NCBI RefSeq assembly: GCF_000621205.1
Contig: NZ_JHYY01000026.1
Coordinates: forward strand, 1 to 64,000
DNA: 64,000 bases
Reading direction: 5' to 3'
Source of the DNA: Halotalea alkalilenta DSM 17697
GTDB taxonomy: Bacteria; Pseudomonadota; Gammaproteobacteria; Pseudomonadales; Halomonadaceae
Below the pieces are notes generated by a model. The model had not been told where the DNA came from, made no database searches, and saw only the letters and a program-made list of their open reading frames with translations. The number at the start of each line of letters is the position of its first letter. The first letter of the stretch is position 1. Made by a program: the position numbers and the translations under genes. This document shows positions 35,441-60,478 of this stretch, piece by piece.

Positions 35441-35614
35441 TCCTGGATTGGTGGTGTGATGGCACCCTGCGACAAACCTATGTAACTCAGCACTTTATAG
35501 TCCCTTCCCACGCCTGCGGAAAGGTGCGGACTCCAGTCCTAACTGCCATCAATCCCATCAGTTCTCCGTAACTGAGGTCTTCCGCCAAAGTTTTCACACA
35601 GCACGCCAATTTAT

Positions 35615-35634
35615 GGGAATTGAACCCGCGTCCG
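35615..35634 (-). other. tmRNA T-arm-like attachment-site relic
   Basis: On the minus strand the 20 bases CGGACGCGGGTTCAATTCCC match the conserved T-arm region near the 3' end of tmRNA (ssrA). The bases beyond it do not restore a T-stem, acceptor stem or CCA, so it is not a functional tmRNA. Phages and islands often integrate in ssrA at this sequence, and accessory genes begin directly to its right. It may mark one end of the element. Confidence 0.5.
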
Positions 35635-35781
35635 TTTTCTGTAGCAAGGAGCGGAGTGTATGAGGCGTGGATTCGATCTTTAGCCATTTCCGTTCGCGCT
35701 GAACTGCTGGCCTATGCTGTCGTTGTATGGGAGAATTGGCAACCATTGGCAATTCTCATTCATCATCTGCAAAGGCAAACG

Positions 35782-35994
35782 ATGGCAGACCCGGAAGGCG
35801 AAATTCTGACTCTGGACGAGGTGGCCGTCTACTTGAAGGCTGGCAAGCGCACCGTCTACCGCCTTGCGGCGGAAGGCAAGCTCCCGGCTTTCAAGTTGGG
35901 CGGCACTTGGCGTTTCCGTCGCAGCGATCTGGATCGGTGGATCGCCAGTCGCATCAGCAAAGGGATGGTGGATGGCGACGAGGGAGCGGAATGA
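35782..35994 (+). CDS. Excisionase-type helix-turn-helix protein
   Basis: The 70-residue MerR/excisionase-like winged-HTH protein has the motif TLDEVAVYLKAGKRTVYRLA followed by the wing KLGGTWRFRRSDLDRW. Such proteins act as phage excisionases or as small regulators of defence operons. The stop overlaps the helicase start (ATGA), so it is the first gene of a five-gene operon. This coupling favours an operon role over excision. Confidence 0.85.
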   Translation: MADPEGEILTLDEVAVYLKAGKRTVYRLAAEGKLPAFKLGGTWRFRRSDLDRWIASRISKGMVDGDEGAE

Positions 35995-38900
35995 CTGTCA
36001 GTACCGCGATCCTTCAGTCCAGAGCTAACCCTCAGCAGCTCGAAGCCATTCTGACCACCGACGGCCCGGTGCTCATCATCGCAGGCCCGGGTTCCGGTAA
36101 GACCTTCACTCTGGTCGAGCGTATCGTTTACCTCATCACCCACAAGAGCGTCGCGCCCGAGTCACTGCTGGTCGTCACCTTCACCGACAAGGCCGCGCGC
36201 GAGCTGACTACGCGCATCTCCAACCGGTTGAGCGAGCTGGGTATCAAGTTCAACTTGAATGAGGTGTACCTCGGTACCTTTCACTCCATTTGCCTGCGGC
36301 TGCTGGAGGAGTACCGCGAGTTCACCCGGCTTAAGCGTAGCTTTACGCTTTTCGATCAGTTCGACCAACAGTATTTTCTCTATCAACACATCAAAGACTT
36401 CCGCGCGCTGCCGGATGCAGAGCTTGTCATGGGTGGAGACCAGACGGGCCGCTGGGCACAGTCGGAAAACCTGCTTAAGTGGGTCAACAAGGTCAGTGAA
36501 GAGGCGCTCGATGCTACGACGTTGGCGTTGGCCCCCGAGCCAGAAATTCGTGCCTTGGCCGCGTGCTTCGCCAAGTATCAGGAACTAATGCACGAGAATA
36601 ACTACCTCGATTTCTCCGGTATTCAGTACGAGGCGCTGCAACTGCTGAACAACCACCCGGAGGTGCTGGCGCAACTGCGCGATAAACTCACCCACCTGAT
36701 GGTGGACGAGTACCAAGACACAAACACCATTCAGGAGCGCATCCTTCTGCTGCTGGCGGGCGAGCGCAGCAACCTTTGCGTGGTGGGCGACGACGATCAG
36801 GGTTTGTACCGTTTTCGCGGCGCCACCATCCGCAACATCCTGGAGTTCCCCGCGCTGTTCGACGAGGGGCAGTGCAAGCAGGTCAAGCTGACCGTCAACT
36901 ATCGCTCGCACCCGGACATCATCCGCTTCTACAACGAGTGGATGAAGGAACAGCAGTGGGACGACGGCACGCGCCTTTTCCGCTTCGCCAAGCAGATCGT
37001 GCCGCGCGAGGACGACTTTCCGGACGTGCCCACGGCGGTGCGGCTGGCCGCCAGTGACGACAACGGCGACACCGCCAACTGGCATGCCGAGGTGCTGGCC
37101 TTCCTCAACGATCTGAAGGCGTCGGGCCAGCTTGCGGACTGGAACCAGGTCGCCTTCCTGTTCCGCTCGGTCAAGAACGACAAAGTGGTAGCGCTTGCGC
37201 GCTTCCTCGAAGCTGAAGGCGTGCCCGTATTCTCGCCGCGCTCGAATATGTTTTTCGAGCGCGAGGAGATTCGTCTGATGATCGGTGCTCTGATCTTCCT
37301 ATTCCCGCAGTTCCCAAAGGTGCGGGCGTGGGCGGAGGGTGTTTCGTTGCCCGTCTGGGACTACTACGACCACTCCTGTTTCAAGCCTTTCATTGATGAG
37401 CTGCGCAAGCCGGAAAACAAGCCTTTGCTGGATTGGGCGCGCCCGCTGGCCAAGCGCCATGCCGTGCTCACTCAGAACACCGACTACGCCTTCTCGGGCC
37501 TGTTCTATCAACTGCTGCAATTCCCGCTGTTCTCGCGCTTCCTCACTGAAGAGGCCGTGCAAGGCGTGGACAAGGGGCGCGCGGCGCGCAATCTTGGCAC
37601 CTTCTCCAAGTTGCTCGCTAAGTTCGAGTATCTGCACTTTGTCAGCGTGTTGAATCCGGAGTGGCTGGAGAAAAACATCCGCGACCTGTTCAACCACTTC
37701 CTGCGTTTCCTGCAAGACGGCGGTATCGGTGAGTATGAGGATGAAGCCGAGTACGCGCCCAAGGGTTGTGTGTCGTTCCTCACTATCCACCAGTCCAAGG
37801 GGCTGGAGTTTCCAATAGTGGTTTGCGGCTCGCTAGAAGCTGTGCCCCGCAAGCAGTACAGCGAAATGGACGTGCTTCTGGAGGACGGTGGCTACCTCTC
37901 CAAGGAACGCTTCGAGCCGCTCGACCACATCAAGAACTTTGATTTCTGGCGACTGTTCTACACGGCCTTCTCACGCGCGCAGAATCTGCTGGTGCTAGCG
38001 GCGCAGGAGAAACAAGGCCGGGGCAAGTCGCCATCCAAGTACTTCGAGCGCCTGTTCTATGAGCTACCCAGCTGGCGTGACGTTGACCTATCTGCGCTGA
38101 CCTTCGAAGCGGTCAAACAGATCAACCTAAAGCGCGAATACTCGTTCACCTCGCACATCACTGTCTTCGAAAACTGCGCCGAGCAATACCGCTTCTTCAA
38201 AGAGCTGGAGTTCGCACCCGTTCGCGAGAGCCCGATGCTCTTCGGTACTTTGGTTCACCAGACCATCGAGGACATCCACAAGACCGTGCTGCGCGGTGAA
38301 GAACACACTTTGAGCCTTGATGCCATCGAAGGCTGGTTCTCTGCGAACTACGCAATGCTGTCAAAAAAGGAGCGTGTTTACTTAGCTCGACCGTCACAGC
38401 GGGCAGCGCTGGGGCACGTGCTGCGCTACTACGAGCGCGAGAAAGGCAACTGGGATCGCATCAAAGAGGCCGAGGTCGAGATTTCTCTCATCAAGGATCA
38501 GTACATCTTGAAGGGCAGCGTCGACCTGGTCCGAGGCGAGAACGACACGGTCGAGATTATCGACTTCAAGTCCGAGAAGAAACCCGACATGGAAAAAGAT
38601 CGGGATCGCTTGCGCCAGTACCAGCACCAGTTGGAAGTGTACGCCCATCTGGTCGAGGAGCGCACCGGCCAGCAGGTCAGCCGCATGCACCTGTACTACA
38701 CCGGCGAAGAAAGCGGGAATCCTTATGTGTCGTTTAGCAAAGACGACCGTGCTATTGGTAAGACCATCGCGCAGTTCGATGACATCGTCGCGCGCATCGA
38801 GCGGCAGGACTACGCCATCACCGCACGCCCGGCCAAGCTGTGTCAGGACTGCGATATGCGCGCTTATTGCGACAACAAGAATTGGAAGTTCAGAGAGTAG
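35991..38900 (+). CDS. UvrD-like helicase fused to a Cas4/AddB-type nuclease
   Basis: The 969-residue protein has superfamily-1 helicase motifs: Walker A AGPGSGKTFT (31-40), VTFTDKAARE, DEYQD, GDDDQGLYRFRGA and the VSFLTIHQSKGLEFP motif. The C-terminal domain is PD-(D/E)XK: EVEISLIK, GSVDLV, IIDFKSEKK, then iron-sulphur cysteines CQDCDMRAYC. Such fusions unwind and degrade DNA ends. It lies between the HTH and Mod genes, with 3 nt before Mod. Not the housekeeping UvrD. Confidence 0.9.
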   Translation: MTVSTAILQSRANPQQLEAILTTDGPVLIIAGPGSGKTFTLVERIVYLITHKSVAPESLLVVTFTDKAARELTTRISNRLSELGIKFNLNEVYLGTFHSICLRLLEEYREFTRLKRSFTLFDQFDQQYFLYQHIKDFRALPDAELVMGGDQTGRWAQSENLLKWVNKVSEEALDATTLALAPEPEIRALAACFAKYQELMHENNYLDFSGIQYEALQLLNNHPEVLAQLRDKLTHLMVDEYQDTNTIQERILLLLAGERSNLCVVGDDDQGLYRFRGATIRNILEFPALFDEGQCKQVKLTVNYRSHPDIIRFYNEWMKEQQWDDGTRLFRFAKQIVPREDDFPDVPTAVRLAASDDNGDTANWHAEVLAFLNDLKASGQLADWNQVAFLFRSVKNDKVVALARFLEAEGVPVFSPRSNMFFEREEIRLMIGALIFLFPQFPKVRAWAEGVSLPVWDYYDHSCFKPFIDELRKPENKPLLDWARPLAKRHAVLTQNTDYAFSGLFYQLLQFPLFSRFLTEEAVQGVDKGRAARNLGTFSKLLAKFEYLHFVSVLNPEWLEKNIRDLFNHFLRFLQDGGIGEYEDEAEYAPKGCVSFLTIHQSKGLEFPIVVCGSLEAVPRKQYSEMDVLLEDGGYLSKERFEPLDHIKNFDFWRLFYTAFSRAQNLLVLAAQEKQGRGKSPSKYFERLFYELPSWRDVDLSALTFEAVKQINLKREYSFTSHITVFENCAEQYRFFKELEFAPVRESPMLFGTLVHQTIEDIHKTVLRGEEHTLSLDAIEGWFSANYAMLSKKERVYLARPSQRAALGHVLRYYEREKGNWDRIKEAEVEISLIKDQYILKGSVDLVRGENDTVEIIDFKSEKKPDMEKDRDRLRQYQHQLEVYAHLVEERTGQQVSRMHLYYTGEESGNPYVSFSKDDRAIGKTIAQFDDIVARIERQDYAITARPAKLCQDCDMRAYCDNKNWKFRE

Positions 38901-38903
38901 ATT

Positions 38904-40706
38904 ATGAGTGATGATTTAAGTAACCAGTTGAATCTTGAGGTTGCGGAAGTCAGCCCGAAATATCTTGATTCGGTCGAGAAATACGAGTTCGAGCCGATCA
39001 AGGGCTACCCTATGCTGAATTGGCGCGGCAAGCGACCGTTCACCTCGACTCAGTATTACCCGGCGCAACTGAAGGAAGTCCACGGCGAAGAGGTGGATGG
39101 CTGGCGCAACAAGATCTTCTGGGGCGACAACCTGCAGGTGATGAGTCATCTGCTGAAGGAGTTTCGCGGTAAGGTTGATCTGATCTACATCGATCCGCCT
39201 TTTGATTCGAAGGCTGATTACAAGAAGAAGATAAAGCTACAAGGCGCGCAGGCCGAATCGGCGTCAAACGTATTTGAAGAGAAGCAATATACAGATATCT
39301 GGACGAATGACGAGTATCTGCAGTTCATGTATGAGCGGCTTGTATTGGCGAAAGAATTACTTTCGCCAAGCGGGAACTTTATGCTTCATTGCGACGAAAA
39401 AAAGTCGCACCATTTGCGATGTGTGCTGGATGAAATATTTGGGCCATCCCAGATGCGCAATGAGATTATTTGGTCCTATGAAAGTGGAGGTAGGGCAAAG
39501 AACTTTCTTTCAAAAAAGCATGATGTGATTTTTTGGTATTCAAAAACAGACGCGTATTTTTTTGATCTAGATGCCATTAGTGAGCGTCGTGGAGCTATGA
39601 AGAAAAACAACATGCGGCGAGGTGTCGAGGAGGATGGCCGCATTTATTACGCAATCACAGTCAATGGCAAGGAATATCGCTATTACGAGGATGATCTGGT
39701 TCCCCCTACTGATGTCTGGGATGTGAGTCATTTACAGCAGCAAGATCCAGAAAGAACTGGATATCCAACTCAGAAGCCAGAAAGATTGATCGAAAGGATG
39801 GTACTTGGCATGTCTCCTTATGGAGGGCTGGTGTTTGACTGTTTTATGGGATCCGGCACCACGCAGGTAGTTTCCATGAGGCACGGTCGTCGTTTCATCG
39901 GCGCGGACATCAACCTTGGTGCGATCCAGACGACCACCAAGCGGCTGATCAAAGTTGCCGAGGAATGTTGCCAAAAGCCGCTCGAACCCGATATCAAGTA
40001 CTACACTGGCTTCGAGGTCTACAACGTCAACCACTACGACATCTTCCGCAACCCAGTGCAGGCTAAGGAACTTTTGCTTGAGGCGTTGGAGGTGCAAAAG
40101 CTGGAATTCAGCACCGTGTTTGACGGCGAAAAGGACGGGCGCATGGTCAAGATCATGCCCGTTAACCGTATTGCCACCCGCGCTGACTTGAACGAGCTGA
40201 TAGCGGGCTTTGATTATAAGGCGTGGGAGCGTAAGCAGAACGAAAGTCCGAACCGCCCGGTCGAGAAGATCATGCTTGTCTGCATGGGTCACGAGCCGGA
40301 CTTGGCCGCGCAACTGGAGCTGGCGGCCAAGCCCTTCAAGATCGACGTGAAAGTGGTGGACATTCTGCGCGACAAGGCAGACCTGGAGTTCAGGCGAGAC
40401 TCGCAGGCTAGGGTGGCCCTCAAGAATGGCGAGCTGGTCATCGAAAGGTTCTATCCAATGAACCTGCTGCAAAAGCTCTCGCTGCAGAAGGAGTCGGTCG
40501 AAGACTGGAAGGAGTTGGTCGAGTCGGTGCTGATCGACTGGAACTACGACGGCGCTGTGCTGCAACCAGCGGTGGTGGACATTCCCGGCAAGAAAGATCT
40601 GGTCAAGGGTGCATACGCCGTGCCCCAGGATGCAGGCACCATCCGCGTGAAGATCACCGATCTGCTTTCGGAATCGTGGGAAGGGAGTGTGAGCAATGGC
40701 GACTAA
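38904..40706 (+). CDS. mod: Type III-like DNA adenine methyltransferase (Mod)
   Basis: The 600-residue beta-class N6-adenine methyltransferase has the catalytic DPPF motif at residues 97-100 and the AdoMet-binding DCFMGSGTTQV further on. The C-terminal part beyond the methylase fold probably holds the target recognition and Res contact regions. The middle (39280-39800) is visibly more AT-rich than the flanks, a sign of an exchanged recognition segment. The stop overlaps the res start by 11 bp. Confidence 0.9.
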   Translation: MSDDLSNQLNLEVAEVSPKYLDSVEKYEFEPIKGYPMLNWRGKRPFTSTQYYPAQLKEVHGEEVDGWRNKIFWGDNLQVMSHLLKEFRGKVDLIYIDPPFDSKADYKKKIKLQGAQAESASNVFEEKQYTDIWTNDEYLQFMYERLVLAKELLSPSGNFMLHCDEKKSHHLRCVLDEIFGPSQMRNEIIWSYESGGRAKNFLSKKHDVIFWYSKTDAYFFDLDAISERRGAMKKNNMRRGVEEDGRIYYAITVNGKEYRYYEDDLVPPTDVWDVSHLQQQDPERTGYPTQKPERLIERMVLGMSPYGGLVFDCFMGSGTTQVVSMRHGRRFIGADINLGAIQTTTKRLIKVAEECCQKPLEPDIKYYTGFEVYNVNHYDIFRNPVQAKELLLEALEVQKLEFSTVFDGEKDGRMVKIMPVNRIATRADLNELIAGFDYKAWERKQNESPNRPVEKIMLVCMGHEPDLAAQLELAAKPFKIDVKVVDILRDKADLEFRRDSQARVALKNGELVIERFYPMNLLQKLSLQKESVEDWKELVESVLIDWNYDGAVLQPAVVDIPGKKDLVKGAYAVPQDAGTIRVKITDLLSESWEGSVSNGD

Positions 40707-43404
40707 GCGCACCATCGCCAAGAAGACCGCCCGCACTGCAAGCGCATCGCTGGATTTCGCCTTCTTCCGCTTTCTGTGGCAGTTCTACAAGGACAACCGT
40801 GGGGCGATCCGGCAGAACTACAAGGAGCTAACCCGCAAGTTCCTCGACTTCAACAACCCGGACAAGAACCCCAAGGCCTTCTTGCGACAGCCGCAGTTCG
40901 AAGCGCTGGAAGTCTATGTCTTCCTCAAGGAATTCCTCGGCAACGCCAAGGTCGAGGAAATCTTCAAAGCGTGGTACGAACGCAGCGGCAAGTTTGAGGG
41001 CCGCAGGTTCGGCTCTTTTCTCGGCACGGCGGGGCAGGAAATGTTCCAGTTTGGTGAGTCCGACGAGCTGGAGCTGAACTCTTACAAGGTGCTGTTCGAG
41101 AAGATGCGCAAGAACTCGCGCACCTACCCGAACTACATCTTCGCCCTGACCATGGGCACCGGCAAAACCATCCTGATGGCCACCTGCATTTTCTATGAGT
41201 TCCTGCTGGCCAATAAATTTCCGAAGAGCGCGCACTACTGCCATAACGCGCTGGTGTTCGCGCCGGATAAGACGGTGTTGCAGTCGCTGAAAGAGATCGA
41301 GTCCTTCGACTTGGCCCGTGTGGTGCCGCCAGAGTACGTCAACTTTCTCACCGCGCACCTGCGTTTCCATTACCTCGAGGAGGCGGGCACCTCGCTGGAT
41401 ACACTGGATCGCTCGCGCTTCAATATTATCGTTTCCAACACGCAGAAGATCATCCTCAAGCGCCAGCGCAAGGAGAAGGCGCCCGCTGCAAAGCTATTCG
41501 ACGCGACAGGCGAAACGCTCACCGCCACAGGTGTCTATGCCGACGCCGCCGACCTTTACAACTTCGATCAGCCGGAAGAAGAAGGTGAACTCACCACTAA
41601 TCAGCGCTTCGAGAAGCTGCGTCGATTGGAGCAGTTGGGCATCTACGTGGACGAGGCCCACCACGCCTTCGGCAGGACACTGGCCAAGAATATGGGGATA
41701 GGCGCAAAACCGACGGATACCAGTCTGCGCACCACCATCGACATTCTTGCCGCTAGCCTGAGCACGGCGGGCACGCGGGTGGTGGCCTGCTACAACTACA
41801 CCGGCACGCCCTACGTGGGGCGCGAGGTGTTGCCCGAGGTGGTTTACGCTTACGGCTTGAAAGAGGCCATCGACAAGGGCTTCCTCAAAAAAGTGACGTT
41901 GCACGGCTACGCCAATACCCGCACCGACGAGTTTGTCGATATCGCCATCGAGAACTTCCTGAAGGCGTCTGGCGAGTTACGCCCGGAAGGTCTGCTGCCC
42001 AAGCTGGCGTTCTTCGCTGCCACCGTTGAAGAACTGACAAAAGAGCTGAAGCCCGCCGTCGAGCGTGCGTTGCTCAAACACGGCCTCCCGACCTCGCGTA
42101 TCCTGGTCAACGTGGGCGACAGCAAGATCACCACCAACGACGACATCCGCGAGTTCAACCGGCTCGATACCGAAGGCTCGGAAAAGCAATTCATTCTGCT
42201 GGTCAACAAGGGCCGCGAGGGATGGAACTGTCGGTCGCTGTTCGGGGTAGGCCTGTTCCGTGCACCAAAGTCCAAGATTTTTGTATTGCAAGCTACGATG
42301 CGTTGCCTGCGCGCCATCGGCGAAGCCCAGCACACAGGCCAGGTCTTCCTTTCGAATGACAACCTGAAAACGCTCAACGACGAGCTGCAGCAGAACTTCC
42401 GGGTCAGCGCCGATGAGCTGCAAAAAACCGGCAAAGACAAAGAGCGCGTGCAGATTCGCGTGGTCGAGCCGCCGGTCAAGATCAAGCTGGTGCGTGTGCG
42501 CAAGCTCTTCCAAGTGCGAGAGAAGCAACCTGCCCCTGGGCATGAACTGGTGCCCGAGCGATCCAGCCGGGAGAAGTGGAACGAGCTGGTAGAAAAGTAC
42601 CGCCTGATCGAAACGCAGCAGGATGGCCTGACCGCTGCCGACGCGGCAGGCGCTTCCGGCAGCCGCACCTTCGACCTGACCGCCCGCCGCGACAAGCGTA
42701 CCTTCTCACCAATGACGCTGGTGGCCGAAGTGTCCCGCTATCTCAACCGAAGCCCGCTGGAGATCGAGGATCTGCTCGATGCAACGAAGGAAGGCACCGA
42801 CGAACTGGTGGCCATCACCAACGAGTTTAACGAGCTGCTGTATGACGAGATCATCCCGCGCCTGTTCCGCTTGCTGTTTGAGCTTGACGAGTATGAGAAG
42901 AAGGACGAGTACGAGGTCGATCTGATCAAGATGCCCCCGAACGGCTACTACGAGGTGTCGGCAGCCAAAGACAAGATCGTGCGGAAGGACGATACCCAGA
43001 TCAAGGACGATGAACGTGCCAAGAGCTTCCACCTCGACACCTACTGTTTCGATTCCGGCTCGGAAAACTGGCTGTTCTGGGATCTGCTGCGCGAGCAGCG
43101 GGTGAAGAAGATCTACTTCACCGGGATGTTGACCCACGGGCAGTCCGACTTCTTCATCCAGTACATCGACCCGGACTCGCGCACCGTGCGCAGCTACTAC
43201 CCCGACTTCATCTTCCAGCGCGAAGAGCCGGATGGCAGCTTGAAGTACGTAATCGTCGAGGTGAAGGCTGACAATCAGATCGAGGACGCTGTGGTGCAAG
43301 CCAAAAAGGACTTCGCTCAGCAGATTGCGGTGGCTAGCGGGATGGAGTACCGAATTCTCAAGTCATCGGATGCTGATAACCGTCGTTATCGGATGTTGCT
43401 ATAG
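40696..43404 (+). CDS. res: Type III-like restriction subunit (Res), helicase-nuclease
   Basis: The 902-residue superfamily-2 translocase has Walker A MGTGKT (153-158), a DEAHHAFG box and the motif VI-like region around AREGWNCRSLFGVGLF. A C-terminal PD-(D/E)XK nuclease is seen in YYPDFIFQ and VIVEVKADNQ. With Mod it would cut DNA lacking the Mod methylation after ATP-dependent communication. It is 9 nt ahead of the GHKL gene. Confidence 0.9.
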   Translation: MATKRTIAKKTARTASASLDFAFFRFLWQFYKDNRGAIRQNYKELTRKFLDFNNPDKNPKAFLRQPQFEALEVYVFLKEFLGNAKVEEIFKAWYERSGKFEGRRFGSFLGTAGQEMFQFGESDELELNSYKVLFEKMRKNSRTYPNYIFALTMGTGKTILMATCIFYEFLLANKFPKSAHYCHNALVFAPDKTVLQSLKEIESFDLARVVPPEYVNFLTAHLRFHYLEEAGTSLDTLDRSRFNIIVSNTQKIILKRQRKEKAPAAKLFDATGETLTATGVYADAADLYNFDQPEEEGELTTNQRFEKLRRLEQLGIYVDEAHHAFGRTLAKNMGIGAKPTDTSLRTTIDILAASLSTAGTRVVACYNYTGTPYVGREVLPEVVYAYGLKEAIDKGFLKKVTLHGYANTRTDEFVDIAIENFLKASGELRPEGLLPKLAFFAATVEELTKELKPAVERALLKHGLPTSRILVNVGDSKITTNDDIREFNRLDTEGSEKQFILLVNKGREGWNCRSLFGVGLFRAPKSKIFVLQATMRCLRAIGEAQHTGQVFLSNDNLKTLNDELQQNFRVSADELQKTGKDKERVQIRVVEPPVKIKLVRVRKLFQVREKQPAPGHELVPERSSREKWNELVEKYRLIETQQDGLTAADAAGASGSRTFDLTARRDKRTFSPMTLVAEVSRYLNRSPLEIEDLLDATKEGTDELVAITNEFNELLYDEIIPRLFRLLFELDEYEKKDEYEVDLIKMPPNGYYEVSAAKDKIVRKDDTQIKDDERAKSFHLDTYCFDSGSENWLFWDLLREQRVKKIYFTGMLTHGQSDFFIQYIDPDSRTVRSYYPDFIFQREEPDGSLKYVIVEVKADNQIEDAVVQAKKDFAQQIAVASGMEYRILKSSDADNRRYRMLL

Positions 43405-43413
43405 GAGCCCCCC

Positions 43414-45180
43414 ATGAGTGCTGCCAAGCTTCGATTTCACGTCGACTCTCGTCTCGCCACACTGTTGAGTCAGGAATATAAGTCGACCGAGCGTGCGCTG
43501 AAGGAGTTGGTGGACAACGCTTGGGACGCCGATGCGGATCGGGTCAGCATTCAATTGCCGAAACCATTGAGTGGGGATCCAATAATTATTCGAGACGATG
43601 GCACCGGAATGACGGTGGAAGAGCTACGGCGACACTACCTTACCATTGCCAGGGATCGGCGTTCTGCACGAGGCGAGCGTACTGTCGGGAAGAATCGTCA
43701 AGTTAAGGGGCGCAAAGGAATCGGCAAATTCGCTGGGTTCATGGCAGCGTCGGTGATGACCTTGGAAACTCGCACACGGGGAAAGCTTCACCGTATCGCC
43801 TTGCACATGGACGCCATTGGGAAAGTGGATGACATCGAACTGCTCGATATAGCCCTTCACAGTGAAGACTGCGAACCGGATGCCAACGGCACAGTCATCA
43901 CGTTGAGTGAGTTGCATCAAGGGTTGGCTTATCCCGATGCGAATCGCCTGCGACAGGTGTTACTGCAAGACTACGGGAGGCATGACGACTTTGTCGTTCT
44001 CGTGAATGGAAAGCAACTTGATGTCGATGACATACAAGGAAGTTACTCGGAGCACCAGACAACACTGGCTGACGTAGGGGATGTGAAGCTACGCCTCTCG
44101 ATTTTCGATGGTAAAGCGGGCTTGCGTCAGCCGGGAGTCACGCTTCGCGTCGGCGGCAAAGCGGTCGGGTCACCCAGCTTTTTCGGATTGGAGGAACACG
44201 AATACTTCCCACCGAAGCTATTAAAGAAAATGTACGGGGAAGTCGATGCGGATGGGCTGCTCGATCATGTCACTGCGGGATGGGATTCGCTAGTTGAAAA
44301 CAGTGAAAAACTTAAGGCGGTAGAGGAATTTGTCCAACCGATCCTCATTGCAGCGGCAAAAGAAAAATACGGCATGGAAATCCAGCTTGCACACGCGCGA
44401 ATGCAGAAGGCCATCCAGCAACGTTTGGCGGACTTGCCGGAACATAAGCGGAGTTTCGCCAACAAATCTATCAGAAAAATCCTTGAACGCTATTACGACG
44501 AGCCGCCAAGCAAGATAGAACCCATTGTGGGTGTGTTGCTGGATGCGTTAGAGCGATCCGACTACCGCATCTTGTTGGAACACATCGCAGATGCGTCGCA
44601 GGGTGAAGTGGCGACCATTGCAGATCGATTGAATGACTTCGGGTTGGCTGAGATGGCATTTCTTGTCGCGCAAGCGGCAGCTCGACAGGCTTTTCTTGAC
44701 CAACTAGAAGAATTGGCATGCGATCCTGCTACAACCGAAGCGGCAATGCACAAATCGCTTGAGTTGAGTCTGTGGGTATTCGGGCCGGAATACTCATTCT
44801 TCAGCTCGAACGTCACGTTGAAGAGGCAGATTGAGGATGTCCTCAATACAACATATAAGGGGAAAAATGCCGACAGGCGCCCGGACTTACTGCTGAATCA
44901 GAATCTAAGTGGTGACTATCTTTTGATTGAATTCAAGCGCCCCAGTCACAGCTTAAACTATGACGACTACAGGCAGGCTATTGAGTACCGACACGATTTT
45001 GCCAAGCACATCACCTCGCCGATTCGGGTGGTTCTGATTGGGGGGCGCTTATCTTCTGACTTCCCGAGAGATAATCGTGAGCCGAATGTCGATGTTCTAA
45101 TCTTCAGCCAAGTGATTGCTTCTGCGCGAAGACAGGTTGAATGGTTGTTACGCAGTGACTGCAGCCAGATCACAGCGTAG
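43414..45180 (+). CDS. GHKL ATPase with C-terminal nuclease-like domain
   Basis: The 588-residue protein opens with a MORC/Hsp90-like GHKL ATPase: ELVDNAWDADA (31-41), RDDGTGM (60-66) and GRKGIGKFAG (99-108). The last 120 residues contain RRPDLLLNQN and YLLIEFKRP, a D...ExK pattern like DUF4263/Shedu nucleases. The middle is helical and not recognised. It is the last gene of the HTH-helicase-Mod-Res operon. GHKL-nuclease pairs are known from other phage-defence systems, and that role is inferred here. Confidence 0.8.
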   Translation: MSAAKLRFHVDSRLATLLSQEYKSTERALKELVDNAWDADADRVSIQLPKPLSGDPIIIRDDGTGMTVEELRRHYLTIARDRRSARGERTVGKNRQVKGRKGIGKFAGFMAASVMTLETRTRGKLHRIALHMDAIGKVDDIELLDIALHSEDCEPDANGTVITLSELHQGLAYPDANRLRQVLLQDYGRHDDFVVLVNGKQLDVDDIQGSYSEHQTTLADVGDVKLRLSIFDGKAGLRQPGVTLRVGGKAVGSPSFFGLEEHEYFPPKLLKKMYGEVDADGLLDHVTAGWDSLVENSEKLKAVEEFVQPILIAAAKEKYGMEIQLAHARMQKAIQQRLADLPEHKRSFANKSIRKILERYYDEPPSKIEPIVGVLLDALERSDYRILLEHIADASQGEVATIADRLNDFGLAEMAFLVAQAAARQAFLDQLEELACDPATTEAAMHKSLELSLWVFGPEYSFFSSNVTLKRQIEDVLNTTYKGKNADRRPDLLLNQNLSGDYLLIEFKRPSHSLNYDDYRQAIEYRHDFAKHITSPIRVVLIGGRLSSDFPRDNREPNVDVLIFSQVIASARRQVEWLLRSDCSQITA

Positions 45181-45378
45181 CTATTTGTATTTTTCCGCCC
45201 CACGCTTGCCACATCCTCAGGTGAGCCTGGGCAGTTCATCGGCGGCGGCCGCGTCGTGATGGGTGTGGAATCGAATTGGGCGAGAGCCGTGGTGGGCTAT
45301 CTCGAGGCGCGCCCGGATGGAAAATTCACCACATGGCAGACAAGGTGCTAAGGCCATCTTTCGGTAAGGGAAACGACT
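45181..45378 (+). other. Gap after the five-gene operon
   Basis: A relic-like frame of about 39 codons (QFIGGGRVVMGVESNW...) ends at a TAA near 45351 and has no start. It may be the tail of a lost gene. Otherwise empty. Confidence 0.35.
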
Positions 45379-46305
45379 ATGCTTGCTGGGGTTCTGATCG
45401 TTATATGTTCTGCGCTGATATGGTTGGTATCAGAAGGAATTATTGCCTGGGTATCTGGTGCCGCATTCTTGTTCTTCGGCGCAGTTGTTGTCAACGGGTT
45501 TCTGAGCGGTAAGAAGGGAGAGGAACCGGCCGGAAGCGACTGGCTTCCCACACCCCCGCCTGTTCGTTCTGGCCCAGTTTCGCCGCGACAAACTATGCCC
45601 GTCAGTTCTGATTCAGCCGTCGCTCTTGAGGGTGATGGCAGCTATTCGTTCGACATTGTAGGTGAGTCATATTATCAGGAAGAGTTGAAGCGGATAGCCG
45701 GACCAAAGCAAGAGAAAGGTAAAGCACTTGAGTGTGAGGCGCTCATCATTCACGAGCCAGATAACCCACACGACAGAAATGCTTGTGCCGTAATAATCGA
45801 TGGCCGAAAGGTCGGACACCTCTCAAAGCAAGATGCCAAGGATCAGGTATCGTTCCGTCAGTCCCCTGGATTTTCGTTGTCAGCCAAGGCGTTGATAACG
45901 GGGGGCTGGTCTGACCGTAGAGGCGAAGGCAGCTACGGCGTAAGGCTCGACTATGTGCCGAGGGAGCTCCCGGCCAGGCCACTGGAGAACGAGCTGTATC
46001 GTTTCATGGGGCAGAAGGTACCGCGTAATCTCAGCCGTGGTGATGCCTGGGACTTTGAGCGTAGCCTTGCCGAGGCCGGTGATGAGAGGGTTGGCCTCTG
46101 GCGAACATTCAGAGATGCTGCAGAGTACTTGCAATCTCCCGAAGGGCGTGAAGATTACGACATCAAAAAGCCTTCACTCAAGCAGCTTCGAGAGACATAC
46201 GCCAGTCTGCTCGAGGAGCGCAAGGGTGAGGGGGACACCAGTCCGATGGATGATGCGGATATCCACGAGAAGCTGGTTGATCTTTTTCCTGATCTGGAAA
46301 AATAA
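45379..46305 (+). CDS. HIRAN-domain membrane protein
   Basis: The 308-residue protein has two N-terminal membrane helices (about 1-18 and 20-43), a Pro/Ser linker, then a HIRAN-like domain (FDIVGESYYQEELKRIAG ... PHDRNACAVIIDGRKVGHL). The C-terminal third is charged and helical. HIRAN binds DNA 3' ends or stalled forks and in bacteria occurs beside helicases and nucleases. A membrane-anchored form is unusual. It may belong to the defence cargo, though the gap of 198 bp suggests its own promoter. Confidence 0.7.
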   Translation: MLAGVLIVICSALIWLVSEGIIAWVSGAAFLFFGAVVVNGFLSGKKGEEPAGSDWLPTPPPVRSGPVSPRQTMPVSSDSAVALEGDGSYSFDIVGESYYQEELKRIAGPKQEKGKALECEALIIHEPDNPHDRNACAVIIDGRKVGHLSKQDAKDQVSFRQSPGFSLSAKALITGGWSDRRGEGSYGVRLDYVPRELPARPLENELYRFMGQKVPRNLSRGDAWDFERSLAEAGDERVGLWRTFRDAAEYLQSPEGREDYDIKKPSLKQLRETYASLLEERKGEGDTSPMDDADIHEKLVDLFPDLEK

Positions 46306-46338
46306 GCAGTCTATGACTTGGGGCTGGGTTGAGGGCGC

Positions 46339-46629
46339 TTATGCCAGGTGCCCGACGACGTCGAGATGCTCGTCACCGCGTTGAAACGCGCCGAACCAAC
46401 CGTTTGGTGAGTCGGTGCGTGTGCGACTCACCAGCAGCGTGAAACCTTCGCAGCCGTGCTGCTTGGCATTGGCGAAGTCTGAGGTGTCGAACTTGGCTTC
46501 GCGTACCATGGTCGTGGCCACTGACCTCATGGCAGATTCGAACATGTCGAGTAGATGCGCTTGCCGGTTGGCGTCGATGTTGCATGAAGTCACGTCGTCG
46601 ATGGCGGCGTGTTTGAAACGGTTACTCAT
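46339..46629 (-). CDS. Hypothetical phage protein
   Basis: The 96-residue basic/acidic mixed protein (MSNRFKHAAIDDVTSCNIDANRQ...) is not recognised. It is the last gene of the minus-strand late region, downstream of the spanin genes, and converges with the HIRAN gene. Confidence 0.6.
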   Translation of the reverse strand: MSNRFKHAAIDDVTSCNIDANRQAHLLDMFESAMRSVATTMVREAKFDTSDFANAKQHGCEGFTLLVSRTRTDSPNGWFGAFQRGDEHLDVVGHLA

Positions 46630-46699
46630 GATTGCTGCACTGTGGTGGGTATGGAGGACATGAACGCGCTGTTCAGCGATAAAGCCAAGCGTGTTCGAC

Positions 46700-47197
46700 T
46701 TACTGGCTTGCCGTGCCCATTTCTCTGACCCACGTCTGCAATGCTTTCAGTTGCTCGGCATTCTCGTGGCAGGCTTGGTAGTTGGCGGTGACAGTTCCGG
46801 CGACGGCAGAGAGCGCAATTTCTGCGGCGGCCTCATCAGCATCTCGGGCGGGCTCGGGTAGTTCGCCTGCGGCGGCAGCGTCGTGCAGGCGCACAAAGCC
46901 ACGGTTGATAGTGCAAGCAGCATCGGCTTGTACGGGCACATAGACGGGAACCTCCTTGATAATGGTTTCACCCTTCTGCTGTATGACGCGAACGCGGTCG
47001 ACGTACTGTGTAACGACCTTGGCGGACGCTTGTGCCTGCTGCTCACGCACGACAGCGGCTTGCAGGATCTGTTGCTGGGCGGCGGCATCCCACTGCGCTT
47101 GAACGTGGCCCGCACCCTTTATCCAGCCGAAGCCGACCAAGGCAACGGCCAGTGCGGGCAAGCCCAGCAGGCGATACAACCAAGGGATCAACGTCAT
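46700..47197 (-). CDS. Rz-like inner-membrane spanin
   Basis: The 165-residue protein has one N-terminal membrane helix (PALAVALVGFGWIKG) and a coiled-coil-like periplasmic part (AAQQQILQAAVVREQQAQAS...), as in i-spanins. It links to the o-spanin and fuses inner and outer membranes at lysis. It overlaps the endolysin stop by ATGA. The Rz1 gene is nested inside it in another frame. Confidence 0.85.
   Translation of the reverse strand: MTLIPWLYRLLGLPALAVALVGFGWIKGAGHVQAQWDAAAQQQILQAAVVREQQAQASAKVVTQYVDRVRVIQQKGETIIKEVPVYVPVQADAACTINRGFVRLHDAAAAGELPEPARDADEAAAEIALSAVAGTVTANYQACHENAEQLKALQTWVREMGTASQ
46747..46941 (-). CDS. Rz1-like outer-membrane spanin lipoprotein
   Basis: This 64-residue frame is fully embedded in the Rz gene in another frame. 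The start MCPYKPMLLALSTVALCAC gives a lipobox at LCAC; the mature part is Pro-rich. A strong AAGGAGG site 9 nt upstream of the ATG at 46941 supports translation. This nested layout is the classical Rz/Rz1 pair. Confidence 0.85.
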   Translation of the reverse strand: MCPYKPMLLALSTVALCACTTLPPQANYPSPPEMLMRPPQKLRSLPSPELSPPTTKPATRMPSN

Positions 47198-47697
47198 GGG
47201 GTCGCCTCTCCGAGGCACCGCCGGTACTCGGCTTTCCGCCGTGTGGCCAGCCCGCCGCACAGCCGAGCGTTTGCAGGCAATGCGCAGTCCTTACCCTGGA
47301 AGAAGCGCCATCGCAGCAGCTCGGCGCAGGCTCCCGCGTAGTCCTCGGCGTTGAGTTTTCTGACCAGCGTGGACTGGCAGAACGCGCGGCTGCCGACGTT
47401 GTAAGAAAAGCTCACCAACGCGTCGTACTCGTGCTGGGCCAGGGGCACGGTCACGCATTGTTTGAGCGCACCCTCAAACTGCTGCACATCGGTGAGCGCC
47501 CGAGCCAGCGCCTTCGGCGGCGTCGTGGTGTCGCCCAGCTTCACTCCGGTGGTGGTGCCAAAACCAATGGTCGGCACATCGCCCTTGACCGGGATGACCG
47601 CGCGGTCGGTGTAGCCCTCGTGCAGCACGATGCCGACCAGAGCTGCGGCAGACAAAGTCAGGGCGGCCACCGTCCGTCGTTGTGGTCGTAGGATCAT
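47194..47697 (-). CDS. Phage endolysin (lysozyme, GH24, SAR type)
   Basis: The 167-residue glycosidase has an N-terminal signal-anchor-release-like helix (VAALTLSAAALVGIVL) followed by the catalytic Glu27 in HEGYTD and the loop GDVPTIGFGTT. It cleaves peptidoglycan at lysis. Neighbours are holin upstream and spanins downstream. Confidence 0.9.
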   Translation of the reverse strand: MILRPQRRTVAALTLSAAALVGIVLHEGYTDRAVIPVKGDVPTIGFGTTTGVKLGDTTTPPKALARALTDVQQFEGALKQCVTVPLAQHEYDALVSFSYNVGSRAFCQSTLVRKLNAEDYAGACAELLRWRFFQGKDCALPANARLCGGLATRRKAEYRRCLGEATP

Positions 47698-47921
47698 CGG
47701 TGCATCTCCGGCTGCGCTACCAAGCGGGCGATAGCCGCACCGATGCTGGCACCAAAGGCTAGCAAAACAAACACCCCACGCGGCAGCAGATCACCGAGTA
47801 ATGGAACTACTACTTCTGCCGCTGTGAAGAGGGTTGCGATGAGAGAGAAACGAATGCTCCAGGCAAAACGGGCGACTCTTTGCCAGTCATCGAGCAGGCA
47901 GATTTTCGGTTTGGCGTTCAT
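47694..47921 (-). CDS. Putative holin
   Basis: The 75-residue protein MNAKPKICLLDDWQRVARFAW... has two predicted membrane helices (FSLIATLFTAAEVVVPLL and GVFVLLAFGASIGAAIARL). Size, position directly before the endolysin and the ATGA overlaps on both sides fit a holin. Homology to a named holin class is not certain. Confidence 0.75.
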   Translation of the reverse strand: MNAKPKICLLDDWQRVARFAWSIRFSLIATLFTAAEVVVPLLGDLLPRGVFVLLAFGASIGAAIARLVAQPEMHR

Positions 47922-48190
47922 TGCGTGCTTCCCATCAGTTTTAGCTTGATGGCAGCTCCAATCAGTAGCGCGACCAGAACTCCGGTGGTGAGTACTCTGA
48001 CGGCGGTGCGCCATGCCGTGCGCCGGGCGTCACGCCACGCGTCCAACAGGTCGCGTAGCTCACGGATGTCGCGTGCGGCGTGGCCATTTTCCAGCCCAAG
48101 ATTTGACAGGGCGTGTCGGGCACCGCGTTCGGCAGCTTGCTGGAGGAGCCTTTCCAGCTCCTCGGTGGATAGAGGGGTTGTGTTTTTCAT
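47918..48190 (-). CDS. Small phage membrane protein (DUF6127-like)
   Basis: The 90-residue protein has a charged helical N-terminus (LERLLQQAAERGARHALSNL) with the RDIRELRDLLDAWRDARRTAW segment typical, from memory, of DUF6127, and one C-terminal membrane helix. It may assist lysis or be an antiholin. Its stop overlaps the holin start. Confidence 0.65.
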   Translation of the reverse strand: MKNTTPLSTEELERLLQQAAERGARHALSNLGLENGHAARDIRELRDLLDAWRDARRTAWRTAVRVLTTGVLVALLIGAAIKLKLMGSTQ

Positions 48191-48210
48191 GCGTGTTGGC
48201 CCTCATGTCA

Positions 48211-48546
48211 TTACCCATCATCGACCCCCGATTGGCACATGAGCTGCAGCTCGCGGCGGCGCTTTTGGGGCTCGATGATGGATGTGATGTTGTAAATTGA
48301 ACCATCGAATGCAATGCGCATTGCGGTATCGATTCCTGGTCGATACCGCATGCGAATGCGGGTGGTGGTTTCTGATTGGATGGACGCGGCGGCGAAGAAC
48401 TCACGACCCTGCAAAGGCTCGACGGCTGCCCATACGATGGCCTCCGTCTCCCAGCTATAGGTCATCTCTCCGGTAACGGGGTCTTGTGACCATGTCGATC
48501 GTTGGATCTCAATGCGATGCCGGTAACGGCCAATGGCTGTGCTCAT
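48211..48546 (-). CDS. Phage head closure / head-tail adaptor protein
   Basis: The 111-residue protein (RYRHRIEIQRSTWSQDPVTG ... REFFAAASIQSETTTRIRMRYRPGI) fits the SPP1 gp16/HK97 gp7-type head closure family. It plugs the portal exit and joins the tail. The ATG at 48546 overlaps the gp8-type gene. No tail gene follows it. Confidence 0.85.
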   Translation of the reverse strand: MSTAIGRYRHRIEIQRSTWSQDPVTGEMTYSWETEAIVWAAVEPLQGREFFAAASIQSETTTRIRMRYRPGIDTAMRIAFDGSIYNITSIIEPQKRRRELQLMCQSGVDDG

Positions 48547-49034
48547 AAGCGAGGGACTCGCCACGGATCGAGCAGACCATCGGCAACGCTGTGAGGTAAT
48601 GCGGTGATACCGGTCGCGATGCTCAGCGATTCCCGGTGCTCGTACAGAGTGCCAATACGTAGCAGCATCCATTGTCGGATGGACTTGGGAACAGTCTCGA
48701 TATCACCAAATCCGCACACCAGTGTGATCGTAGCGGCCTCGATAGAGATCAGCGTGGGCGGCCAATGCCCGTCCAGAGTGTAGGGCGAGGTGCTGGTTAT
48801 GCTCTGGATCGGCAACAAGCCTTCGAGCCCCATACGCTCTCCGGCGACCAGCTCTATCTCCCAGGTCTGGGTGATCAGGCGTTGTCCGGTGAGAAACTCG
48901 GCCTGTTCGCGGGCGGCGACGATGAGCGCCTCAATCAATGCATTGTCATCATCGAGATCGACCCGCAGATGCAGTCTGGCCTCGGACAGCGTCAGTGGCT
49001 CGTTTGCCGGTGGCACGGTCAGCGAGGCTTTCAT
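48543..49034 (-). CDS. Head-tail connector (phiE125 gp8 type)
   Basis: The 163-residue protein begins KASLTVPPANEPLTLSEARLHLRVD and has LIVAAREQAEFLTGQRL, the signature of the phiE125 gp8/gp6-like connector family that sits under the portal. It overlaps the capsid gene by one base (TAATG). Confidence 0.88.
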   Translation of the reverse strand: MKASLTVPPANEPLTLSEARLHLRVDLDDDNALIEALIVAAREQAEFLTGQRLITQTWEIELVAGERMGLEGLLPIQSITSTSPYTLDGHWPPTLISIEAATITLVCGFGDIETVPKSIRQWMLLRIGTLYEHRESLSIATGITALPHSVADGLLDPWRVPRL

Positions 49035-50266
49035 TACTCTGCCTGCTGCAAGGCTTTGACGGCTCCGCCGACGTCAATCAGGTTGCCGTCGTGGCGTGAG
49101 AACGCCAGAAACCCGACTTGCCCCTTTTCCGTGTACTTGGAGTCGGTGAGCCGGAACAGCGACACCGCCAACACATCGCGGATCAGGTACTTGGAGAAGT
49201 CTCCAAACAACACCGCTTTGGCTTCGGCTGCCAGTACCGGCATCTGCTGGTTGATGGAGTAGGCGTAGCCCAGCACCGTGTCCGGCTCGCGCACCGCCAC
49301 GCCCGGTAGCCACAGTGGCCGGTTCTGGTCGTCCTTGAGCTTCTTGATGGCTTTGAGCGTGCTGTCGTGGAACATGAAACGGCACCGCCCTGCTTGTCGG
49401 TAGGCCGGATCGACACTGTGCTCAAGATCGATCAGCTCATCGAAGGTGATGGCTGCTGCAGCGTCCGCGTTCGCCCCTACAGTGGCCGCTGTCACGATGC
49501 CGGTGGGCTGGCCGACGCCGGTGCCCACTGTGAAGTGTTTGTTGGTGATTCGCGCAATGCGCTGCGCCAGTCGCTGGTTGATGTGCGCCTCAAGGTCGAT
49601 AACTGCGTCCTGTAGCAACTCGAAGGGCACCGCCACCGACTTTGAACTGTATTTGTAGGCACCCAGCGATTTCACGCCGAAGGTGAAGTCCTGCGCCGAT
49701 ACCGACTGATTTTCCCCGACGATCTCGCCTTCCTCGGATGTGGCGTTGGTGGTGGGGTAGTTGATCGGGTTGCCGCTGGCGGTGGGCAGAATGGTGGCCA
49801 CCTCGCGCATACCGCCAAAGGCGGACATGGCTTCGATCAACTGACGGGCGACGTCGGTGGGTACCAAATAGCCGCCCTCGGCGGGCACGGTAGTGCCCAT
49901 GCTCGCTTGAATACTGGCGGCCTTGCGGGCCACGGCTTGCTGCTGTTCGTAGCTCAACGCGTTGATGCCACCGCGTAGCCAGGCCACGAAGATGCTTTTT
50001 TCCTGCTGCAATTGATGTTCGGCCTCATCGGTGGAGAGGCCCAGCTCATTGCTGCGCTGGTTGATTGACGCACGGTTCTGCGCTTCGAGGTCGTAGGCCT
50101 TTTGTTGGCGCTCGATCTGGGCATCCAGCCGGTCGATATCCGCGACCAGCGTGTCGTACTGCTGCTGTTGGGTGTCCTGCCATTGGTCACCGGTGTGCTG
50201 GTCGACCAGGTTGCGCAGGGTTTTGGCGAAGGTGGCACGCTGTTCGCGCAGGGCTTGGATATTCAT
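49034..50266 (-). CDS. HK97-type major capsid protein
   Basis: The 410-residue protein has an N-terminal coiled-coil delta domain (residues 1-100) that the protease removes, and the HK97 fold from about 110 (GGYLVPTDVARQLIEAMSAFGGMREVATILPTASG). The E-loop and P-domain regions (FGVKSLGAYKYSSKSVAVPFELLQD) are typical. Length is normal. A terminator-like hairpin lies just before its ribosome site. Confidence 0.95.
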   Translation of the reverse strand: MNIQALREQRATFAKTLRNLVDQHTGDQWQDTQQQQYDTLVADIDRLDAQIERQQKAYDLEAQNRASINQRSNELGLSTDEAEHQLQQEKSIFVAWLRGGINALSYEQQQAVARKAASIQASMGTTVPAEGGYLVPTDVARQLIEAMSAFGGMREVATILPTASGNPINYPTTNATSEEGEIVGENQSVSAQDFTFGVKSLGAYKYSSKSVAVPFELLQDAVIDLEAHINQRLAQRIARITNKHFTVGTGVGQPTGIVTAATVGANADAAAAITFDELIDLEHSVDPAYRQAGRCRFMFHDSTLKAIKKLKDDQNRPLWLPGVAVREPDTVLGYAYSINQQMPVLAAEAKAVLFGDFSKYLIRDVLAVSLFRLTDSKYTEKGQVGFLAFSRHDGNLIDVGGAVKALQQAE

Positions 50267-50283
50267 GGGGCGATCTCCAGATA

Positions 50284-50313
50284 CAAAAAAGCCGCCGGAG
50301 AAACTCGGGCGGC
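50284..50313 (-). terminator. Terminator-like hairpin ahead of the capsid gene
   Basis: On the minus strand GCCGCC / GGCGGC closes an 11-nt loop and is followed by TTTTTTG. It is 18 nt upstream of the capsid start, inside the morphogenesis operon. Confidence 0.75.
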
Positions 50314-50362
50314 AAGGGTGGTGAGGGTTAAACGTGGGTGCGATAACAGGGGCAGCGTAATC

Positions 50363-53992: not shown

Positions 53993-53994
53993 GG

Positions 53995-54453: not shown

Positions 54454-54569
54454 GGCATGAGGACCCCCCCTATGTCAATTTCGCGGAAACAAAAAAATGA
54501 GGTGGCGCGCGGACACGGGCGCGGCGGCCCCAGACTTCGCCTCCCCCCGACCCCGAGGGGTTTCAAAGG

Positions 54570-54947: not shown

Positions 54948-54977
54948 GGAATCTTTGTTGCGTGAAGGTCGGCAGAA

Positions 54978-55315: not shown

Positions 55316-55351
55316 ATCGTCATCCACCACCCCCGAAGGAGCAGACCATGA
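55046..55351 (+). CDS. DUF6900-type phage protein
   Basis: The 101-residue protein (IDTILTLIAQKHLGIETLQTRSSDRLDFHDTAVWCIRDALEAA) matches a small family common in phages and islands, named DUF6900 from memory. Function unknown. AAAGGA precedes the ATG. The stop overlaps the next start by 4 nt. The C-terminal tail carries the direct repeat. Confidence 0.75.
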   Translation: MNQIDTILTLIAQKHLGIETLQTRSSDRLDFHDTAVWCIRDALEAAFKAGVEIGASSPKTAEAEIARDCSESRQTKQKALGFTPEQRVHHIVIHHPRRSRP

Positions 55352-55917: not shown

Positions 55918-55975
55918 AAAGCGACTAACCGCCGCCATATCGCCGTCAAGGCGATATCCCGACAAAGGACACTCA

Positions 55976-59048: not shown

Positions 59049-59060
59049 AGTGGAAGTCCC

Positions 59061-60460: not shown

Positions 60461-60478
60461 CTGCCGATTGGGCAATAA

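What the first reader, a model, noticed from the sequence alone, without database searches (positions are those of the whole stretch)
35782..45180. Five-gene operon combining a type III-like Mod/Res pair with a helicase-nuclease and a GHKL ATPase
HTH, UvrD-nuclease, Mod, Res and GHKL-nuclease genes are joined by overlaps or gaps of 9 nt or less, so they act as one unit. Ordinary type III systems have only Mod and Res. From memory, a helicase-methylase-ATPase system named Hma has been described; this may be a relative with Res embedded or a distinct system. Three different nuclease domains in one operon is striking.
Basis: partly seen in the sequence, partly recalled or inferred. Interest (0 to 1): 0.78.

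Follow-up and report, generated by a model that had tools for sequence, protein, structure and literature searches.

The report
Prophage-borne restriction operon with add-on nuclease
A virus dormant in this bacterium's chromosome carries a tightly packed five-gene operon that is likely a restriction system against other viruses: three of its genes recur together in distant bacteria, while the fifth, a predicted ATP-driven DNA-cutting protein, looks like an optional add-on.

Summary
The five genes are real, same-strand and tightly packed (35782-45180); the helicase starts at 35991, not at the raw ORF start. They are probably not one obligate system. Helicase-Mod-Res is a conserved trio: 47 non-redundant loci of 74 examined carry it whole, from Proteobacteria to Bacillus and Enterococcus plasmids, and it was described in 2017 as UvrD-Cas4 beside type III Mod/Res. 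The GHKL gene follows Res in none of 56 other Res-anchored loci; relatives lie alone or in other operons, and a GHKL-Shedu protein of this type (VcSduA) defends by itself. Yet the whole five-gene order, with similar overlaps and the same ribosome-binding site, recurs in another family's genome, and the Res-GHKL junction in an IMG/VR contig, each linked to related prophage genes. Here the operon sits inside the left end of a 39.3-kb insertion at ssrA that a same-genus genome lacks. Mod's centre differs between otherwise similar operons, as expected of an exchanged recognition domain. Most likely: prophage-carried type III-like restriction with an end-degrading helicase-nuclease and an accessory nuclease. 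How often a gene follows Res is no higher than background. Not Hma. No function was tested.

The parts
35782..35994 (+). HTH_17 (excisionase-type) small DNA-binding protein, first gene
   Evidence: Pfam PF12728 E 1.4e-19; PHROG excisionase/regulator; homologue found upstream of the helicase in 20 of 62 genome loci
35991..38900 (+). UvrD-type SF1 helicase fused to Cas4/RecB-like nuclease with a four-cysteine motif
   Evidence: Pfam UvrD-helicase E 5.5e-75, PDDEXK_1 E 1.9e-22; Walker A lysine, DExQD, GxxD...DxK and four cysteines identical in 48 of 48 aligned proteins
38904..40706 (+). Mod: beta-class DNA methyltransferase (DPP motif before FxGxG) with variable central region
   Evidence: PF01555 E 3.2e-49; best PADLOC hit MTase_III E 1.3e-57; EcoP15I Mod match E 1.2e-18 over residues 16-216
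39343..39826 (+). Segment of Mod that does not align at DNA level with the G940 operon: likely target-recognition domain
   Evidence: blastn break 39342/39827; 30-aa blocks starting at residues 181, 211, 241 are 29, 10, 14% identical across 28 close loci
40696..43404 (+). Res: SF2 helicase with C-terminal TnsA-like PD-(D/E)XK nuclease
   Evidence: ResIII E 1.6e-5, Tn7_TnsA-like_N E 8.8e-9; GxGKT, DEAHH, PD...ExK conserved 48 of 48; TnsA fold match prob 1.00, E 0.04
43414..45180 (+). GHKL (MORC-like) ATPase with C-terminal Shedu-like nuclease (paraMORC3 / VcSduA type)
35455..64000 (.). Part in this window of a prophage inserted at ssrA (continues to about contig position 74747)
   Evidence: same-genus genome G433 lacks contig 35455-74747; serine integrase at contig 72678-74033; tmRNA at 74749-75131; TerL, portal, capsid genes
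35615..35634 (.). 20-bp near-repeat of the ssrA 3' part (19 of 20 identical to contig 74762-74781)
   Evidence: tmRNA position

Best explanation
The operon is likely a type III-like restriction-modification system, carried as cargo by a prophage, in which a third conserved subunit would degrade cut DNA and a fifth, optional gene would add a second nuclease. Shown: the gene order and junctions, the domains and conserved catalytic residues, the recurrence of helicase-Mod-Res together, the divergence of the middle of Mod between otherwise similar operons, the rarity of GHKL beside this trio, and the empty insertion site in a same-genus genome. Inferred: (1) Mod methylates a short site chosen by its variable region and so marks host and prophage DNA; (2) Res, guided by Mod, translocates on unmodified incoming DNA and cuts it with its TnsA-like nuclease; (3) the UvrD-Cas4-like protein loads on the ends and degrades them, making the cut irreversible; (4) the GHKL-nuclease, a paraMORC3/VcSduA-type protein, works as a largely autonomous second layer that clamps DNA with its ATPase and cuts with its own nuclease; (5) the small HTH protein sets expression. 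The benefit would be protection of the lysogen, and so of the prophage, from other phages.
For: Trio: of 74 pooled loci (62 genome loci, 5 annotated records IMG/VR loci; 3 duplicates) 47 non-redundant ones carry full-length helicase, Mod and Res in that order. Helicase-anchored check: 4 of 369 genomes, window included, all 4 with Mod and Res downstream within 2.5 kb (in one the Res is cut by the contig end, and one is the same contig as L037). Catalytic residues conserved 48 of 48. Mod blocks from residues 181, 211, 241 only 29, 10, 14% identical, while helicase and Res are mostly 80-99%. GHKL directly after Res in 0 of 56 other Res-anchored loci; one of them, L052, has a 23% relative 3.3 kb downstream. 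GHKL relatives in other settings. Single-gene defence by a GHKL-Shedu protein, abolished by E27A or K557A (PMC12137116, passages). Five-gene operon in G940, Res-GHKL in L075, each with related prophage genes. dN/dS 0.04-0.09 for helicase, Res and GHKL. Empty site.
Against: No activity was measured. Res has no sequence match in the PDB, EcoP15I Res included, and only E 0.0012 to a PADLOC type III model; its fold matches generic SF2 enzymes, EcoP15I Res among ties, on a low-confidence model (pLDDT 69, pTM 0.42). The shared ribosome-binding site and the preserved five-gene order argue that GHKL is more than a chance neighbour. A tight gene after Res is no commoner (21 of 58) than after other large ORFs in the same loci (59 of 162), so occupancy itself is no sign of a special slot; confidence was lowered from 0.62 for this. 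dS of GHKL (1.2) exceeds that of Res and helicase (0.7-0.8) between window and G940 or L075, which may mean a separate history or saturation. The 2017 authors found the UvrD-Cas4 gene also in Dcm contexts or alone, so it may be ancillary. In the trio pool, L043 and L060 have Res but no helicase match despite room upstream.
Confidence: 0.58

Rival explanations
1. The five genes form one obligate system in which the GHKL ATPase is a working subunit that would loop or clamp DNA between recognition site and cut site, as Iyer and colleagues proposed for MORC/paraMORC proteins in restriction operons.
For: Five-gene order in window and G940, and the same Res-GHKL spacing (8-9 nt) with an AGGAG-type signal in window, G940 and L075; strong purifying selection on GHKL, dN/dS 0.04-0.07; paraMORCs described in restriction operons (PMC2292703, sections 4-5 read).
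Against: 0 of 56 other Res-anchored loci have it; the three cases carry related prophage genes, so they are not independent origins; a GHKL relative works alone (PMC12137116) and others sit by unrelated genes.
Confidence: 0.22
2. Two unrelated defences merely share a transcript: a complete trio and a free-standing GHKL-Shedu gene brought together by prophage cargo shuffling, with no functional link. This shares the trio part of the best explanation and differs only on GHKL.
For: VcSduA is a single-gene defence (PMC12137116, passages); GHKL relatives in L072, L078, L122 and L124 have no trio beside them; tight genes after Res are varied and no commoner than background.
Against: The junction is preserved through about 10% protein divergence and is built for coupled translation; a 70% relative follows, 127 nt downstream, another methyltransferase-helicase operon, hinting at a preference for restriction operons.
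Confidence: 0.3
3. It is an Hma system or close relative.
For: Both combine a helicase, a methyltransferase and an ATPase.
Against: HmaC is a DUF499 ATPase (PMC12839542, passage); no HmaB model match anywhere in this genome; no Hma model in the full Res and GHKL hit lists.
Confidence: 0.01

Closest known systems
UvrD-Cas4 fusion + type III Mod/Res neighbourhood (Hudaiberdiev et al. 2017, PMC5704561)
   Same: Same three core genes, HTH genes also noted nearby
   Different: The section read (8) does not mention a GHKL gene beside Mod/Res, prophage carriage or recognition-domain exchange, and reports no experiment on the trio
GHKL-Shedu VcSduA / paraMORC3 (PMC12137116; PMC2292703)
   Same: N-terminal GHKL ATPase, MORC-like fold, C-terminal PD-(D/E)XK nuclease
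   Different: VcSduA acts as a single gene; here it is the last gene of a restriction operon
Classical type III restriction-modification (EcoP15I)
   Same: Beta-class Mod with variable recognition region, Res with SF2 helicase and nuclease, Mod before Res
   Different: Extra conserved helicase-nuclease; Res very diverged, with a TnsA-like nuclease; extra GHKL gene
Hma (PADLOC 2021, PMC8565338)
   Same: Helicase, methyltransferase, ATPase
   Different: Other methyltransferase family and other ATPase (DUF499, not GHKL)

Membership tests
UvrD-Cas4 / Mod / Res trio (2017) | UvrD-like helicase fused to Cas4-like pfam12705 nuclease | tested here: met
   UvrD-helicase and PDDEXK_1 (PF12705) above cut-off, Cas_Cas4 also above cut-off
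UvrD-Cas4 / Mod / Res trio (2017) | Mod and Res genes adjacent | tested here: met
Type III restriction-modification | Beta-class amino-methyltransferase Mod with variable recognition region | tested here: met
   (the target base itself is untested)
Type III restriction-modification | Res homologous to EcoP15I Res (SF2 + C-terminal nuclease) | tested here: inconclusive
   Domains and motifs present; no PDB sequence match; PADLOC REase_III E 0.0012; fold match tied with other SF2 enzymes
Type III restriction-modification | One-strand methylation and cutting about 25-27 bp from the site (recalled) | not testable with these tools
   needs methylome and cleavage assay
GHKL-Shedu / paraMORC3 | N-terminal GHKL ATPase with conserved nucleotide-binding motifs | tested here: met
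GHKL-Shedu / paraMORC3 | C-terminal DUF4263/SduA nuclease with PD-(D/E)XK residues | tested here: inconclusive
   PF14082 22.2 bits against cut-off 27, though some 69-75% relatives carry PF14082; D491, E506, K508 invariant in 19 sequences
Hma | HmaB methyltransferase and HmaC DUF499 ATPase | tested here: not met
   No HmaB (PDLC00661) match in the genome; the ATPase is GHKL; no Hma model in the full lists for Res and GHKL

The most novel reading that the evidence does not exclude
The end of the UvrD-Cas4/Mod/Res operon is a docking place for interchangeable second-layer effectors: the constant trio marks and cuts, and the gene after Res (GHKL nuclease here; Mokosh-like helicases, a GIY-YIG nuclease, a beta protein and others elsewhere) acts when the first layer is blocked, so that prophages diversify both the target (Mod centre) and the backup weapon while keeping the engine.
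Probability: 0.22. Interest if true: 0.72.

Novelty: new variant of a known kind. Interest (0 to 1): 0.5.

Why it matters
It links two lines of work that I did not see joined in the listings and passages of my searches: UvrD-Cas4-associated type III restriction and GHKL-Shedu nucleases. Two related prophage operons with the same engine but different Mod centres, and trios with and without GHKL, make a natural series for asking what UvrD-Cas4 adds to restriction and whether operons recruit backup effectors. I saw no experiment on the trio in those searches, so a working example would be the first test that I know of.

Tried and rejected
Hma: rejected on the ATPase family and on the absence of Hma model matches. 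The methyltransferase argument is weaker: the 2021 paper calls HmaB an m5C enzyme (PMC8565338, passage) while PADLOC labels its HmaB models DNA-adenine methylase. 'GHKL genes usually sit with Mod/Res': rejected. 'GHKL next to Res is chance': weakened by G940 and L075. 'The place after Res is used more often than elsewhere': tested and not borne out, 21 of 58 against 59 of 162 other large ORFs; only the make-up of those genes is left as a hint, and the odds of the docking idea were lowered from 0.3 for this. Structure of Res: low confidence; Foldseek gave HsdR of EcoR124I first (E 1.2e-4) and VIA-align generic SF2 enzymes, EcoP15I Res at rank 27, so it does not decide type III membership. The GHKL fold search was filled by the ATPase part (residues 2-326); no Shedu nuclease row appeared among those shown, which says nothing. 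Promoter and terminator scans were at or below chance. No Rfam hit around the operon. A tyrosine integrase was sought and not found on this contig; the integrase is a serine recombinase. HIRAN gene 45379-46305 was considered as a sixth member and dropped: the alignment skips it in L075 and G940, and it lies 198 nt downstream.

Rows left out before counts: one search covered 50 of the 62 genome loci. One search dropped 3 duplicates (L080, L081, L086), loci with under 1 kb after Res and Res genes that were short or broken. In some searches, 25 of 74 pooled loci lack a full-length frame for at least one of the three genes in my extraction (L005, L007, L019, L022, L024, L029, L033, L036, L039, L042, L043, L046, L049-L051, L053-L057, L060, L061, L063, L064, L081), many of them at contig ends, and 2 more were dropped as duplicates (L080, L086). 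The count of 10 GHKL loci leaves out partial hits (L079, L093), paralogues of 20-27% (L094-L096) and three loci with no or only about 0.5 kb of upstream sequence (L076, L077, L123). Genes after Res in L018, L037 and L039 were not scanned against families.

Full report
What is there. HTH 35782-35994 overlaps the helicase start at 35991 by ATGA; Mod follows the helicase after 3 nt; Res overlaps Mod by 11 nt; the GHKL gene starts 9 nt after Res, and the Res stop codon is part of its ribosome-binding site TAGGAG. Domains: HTH_17; UvrD helicase fused to a Cas4/RecB-like nuclease; N6_N4 methyltransferase; SF2 ResIII helicase with C-terminal TnsA-like nuclease; GHKL ATPase with Shedu-like C-terminus. 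So three PD-(D/E)XK-type nucleases lie in one operon.

The conserved core is a trio. A scan of genome contigs with a Res alignment, limited to two peptide patterns, gave 62 loci. Annotated records from Nitrosomonas, Vibrio, Phaeobacter, E. coli and Enterococcus each show helicase, methyltransferase and Res in order, and IMG/VR gave 7 loci. Of these 74 loci, 47 non-redundant ones carry all three genes at full length in the order helicase-Mod-Res, with 341-350 nt between helicase and Mod in three and 2 kb in one. They reach Bacillus, Ktedonobacterales, Halobacteriovorax and Enterococcus. Starting from the helicase instead, 4 of 369 same-class genomes (the window's included) have a close copy, and all 4 have Mod and Res downstream, two directly and two after 2-2.5 kb; one of the four is the contig already seen as L037. 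Key residues (Walker A lysines, DExQD or DEAHH, DPP, nuclease D...ExK or DxK) are identical in 48 of 48 aligned sets, as are four cysteines of the helicase nuclease, which resemble the iron-sulphur staple of AddB/Cas4 (recalled). Exceptions: L043 and L060 have room upstream yet no helicase match.

Mod looks like a specificity subunit. Among 28 loci whose Res is over 80% identical, the 30-residue blocks of Mod starting at 181, 211 and 241 are 29, 10 and 14% identical; the edges (151, 271, 301) are 60, 49 and 61%, the first block 39%, the rest 70-97%. Helicase and Res blocks are mostly 80-99%, with dips to 55-78% in a few. Between window and G940, DNA aligns on both sides but not across 39343-39826, and protein identity falls to 5-35% at residues 181-280. 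This is what exchange of a target-recognition domain would leave.

The GHKL gene is an uncommon companion. It follows Res in the window and in L075, both reached through the GHKL gene, and in none of the other 56 non-redundant Res-anchored loci; L052 has a 23% relative 3.3 kb downstream. In 50 of the 62 trio genomes searched, 5 have any GHKL relative at E 1e-10: one at 70% on another contig, one 73% fragment, three at 23-27%. In wider samples close relatives are rare: 1 of 369 in the class, 3 of 293 in the order and 3 of 398 in the phylum, each count including the window. The 70% relative follows, 127 nt downstream, an operon with a DUF1156 methyltransferase and a PLD-type SF2 helicase. Relatives of 43% on Agrobacterium and Sinorhizobium plasmids lie back to back with a DEAD/DEAH helicase gene, the Agrobacterium one matching PDC-S28. 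Of 10 GHKL loci with enough upstream sequence, 3 have the trio (window, L075, G940).

What else follows Res. A same-strand ORF of at least 150 aa starts within 120 nt of the Res stop in 21 of 58 loci. This is no more than after other large ORFs in the same loci (59 of 162), so the place is not special by occupancy. The contents are varied: SF1 helicases resembling DpdJ or Mokosh MkoA, PDC-M19B, a GIY-YIG/DUF4357 protein (PDC-S14), DUF2971, a RusA-like protein, a beta protein (PD-Lambda-2_C) and a nucleoside phosphorylase-like protein. Of 9 representatives scanned, 8 hit a PADLOC model at 1e-5, though helicase hits may be generic and no control was run for this.

The five-gene operon is stable with its prophage. 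G940 has HTH (80%), helicase (90%), Mod (73%), Res (88%) and GHKL (90%), with junctions of -4, -4, -11 and +8 nt and the same TAGGAG signal. The IMG/VR contig L075 has the end of Res (91%) and GHKL (90%) 8 nt apart, then the same prophage structural genes at about 80-84% DNA identity. G940 shares the lysozyme, both ParB-methyltransferase genes and a primase-like gene with this prophage, but its head genes differ: capsid, portal and TerL find no match in 54 kb around the operon. So it is a related, mosaic prophage. GHKL is under strong purifying selection (dN/dS 0.04-0.07). Its dS against the window exceeds that of Res and helicase, which I cannot explain.

The element. A same-genus genome lacks contig 35455-74747 and has its tmRNA gene directly joined to the sequence left of the operon; it also lacks Res. 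In the window's contig the tmRNA gene lies at 74749-75131, a serine integrase at 72678-74033, and a 20-bp near-repeat of the ssrA end at 35615-35634, some 160 bp inside the boundary given by the empty site. TerL, portal, capsid and lysozyme genes lie in between. So the operon sits just inside the left end of a 39.3-kb prophage.

Prior work. Hudaiberdiev et al. 2017 (PMC5704561: section 8 read in full, other passages) already reported UvrD-Cas4 fusions beside type III Mod and Res, with HTH genes nearby. Iyer et al. 2008 (PMC2292703: sections 4 and 5 read, other passages) defined paraMORC3 as GHKL plus a restriction-fold nuclease, in restriction operons or alone. The Vibrio cholerae paper (PMC12137116: passages) showed that a GHKL-Shedu protein defends alone. 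In searches I saw no paper joining UvrD-Cas4/Mod/Res with GHKL; most hits were seen as listings only (one search lists 15 of 71), and the library lacks most subscription journals.

Verdict. This is a new variant of a known kind: a prophage-borne UvrD-Cas4/type III-like operon extended by a paraMORC3 nuclease. What remains open is whether that nuclease works with the trio or beside it.

Noticed in passing
window 45379-46305: HIRAN-domain protein with an N-terminal membrane-like stretch, between the operon and the prophage structural genes; the alignment skips it in L075 and G940, so it is likely a later insertion
   Followed up: partly
window 56374-57636 and 57633-59177 (-): Two overlapping ParB-N + DNA methyltransferase genes in tandem within the prophage, 97% and 88% identical in G940; possibly self-protection of the phage
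   Followed up: partly
contig 72678-74033 (L111 8678-10033): Large serine integrase beside ssrA; the 39.3-kb element is absent from same-genus genome G433
   Followed up: yes
L092 8985-19781 (-): Pseudomonas operon: AAA/SMC-like ATPase, Schlafen AlbA_2, DUF1156 methyltransferase, PLD-type SF2 helicase, then a 70% GHKL relative
   Followed up: partly
L095 8400-18393 (-): Trio followed by a 1028-aa SMC-like ATPase and a distant (23-25%) GHKL protein: possibly a second, separate GHKL recruitment
   Followed up: partly
L037 6055-8019: OLD-like ATPase-TOPRIM gene inserted between helicase and Mod
   Followed up: no
L070 5352-12592: The same trio on an Enterococcus faecium plasmid, with an IS1216 transposase gene just upstream (Res about 42% identical)
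   Followed up: no
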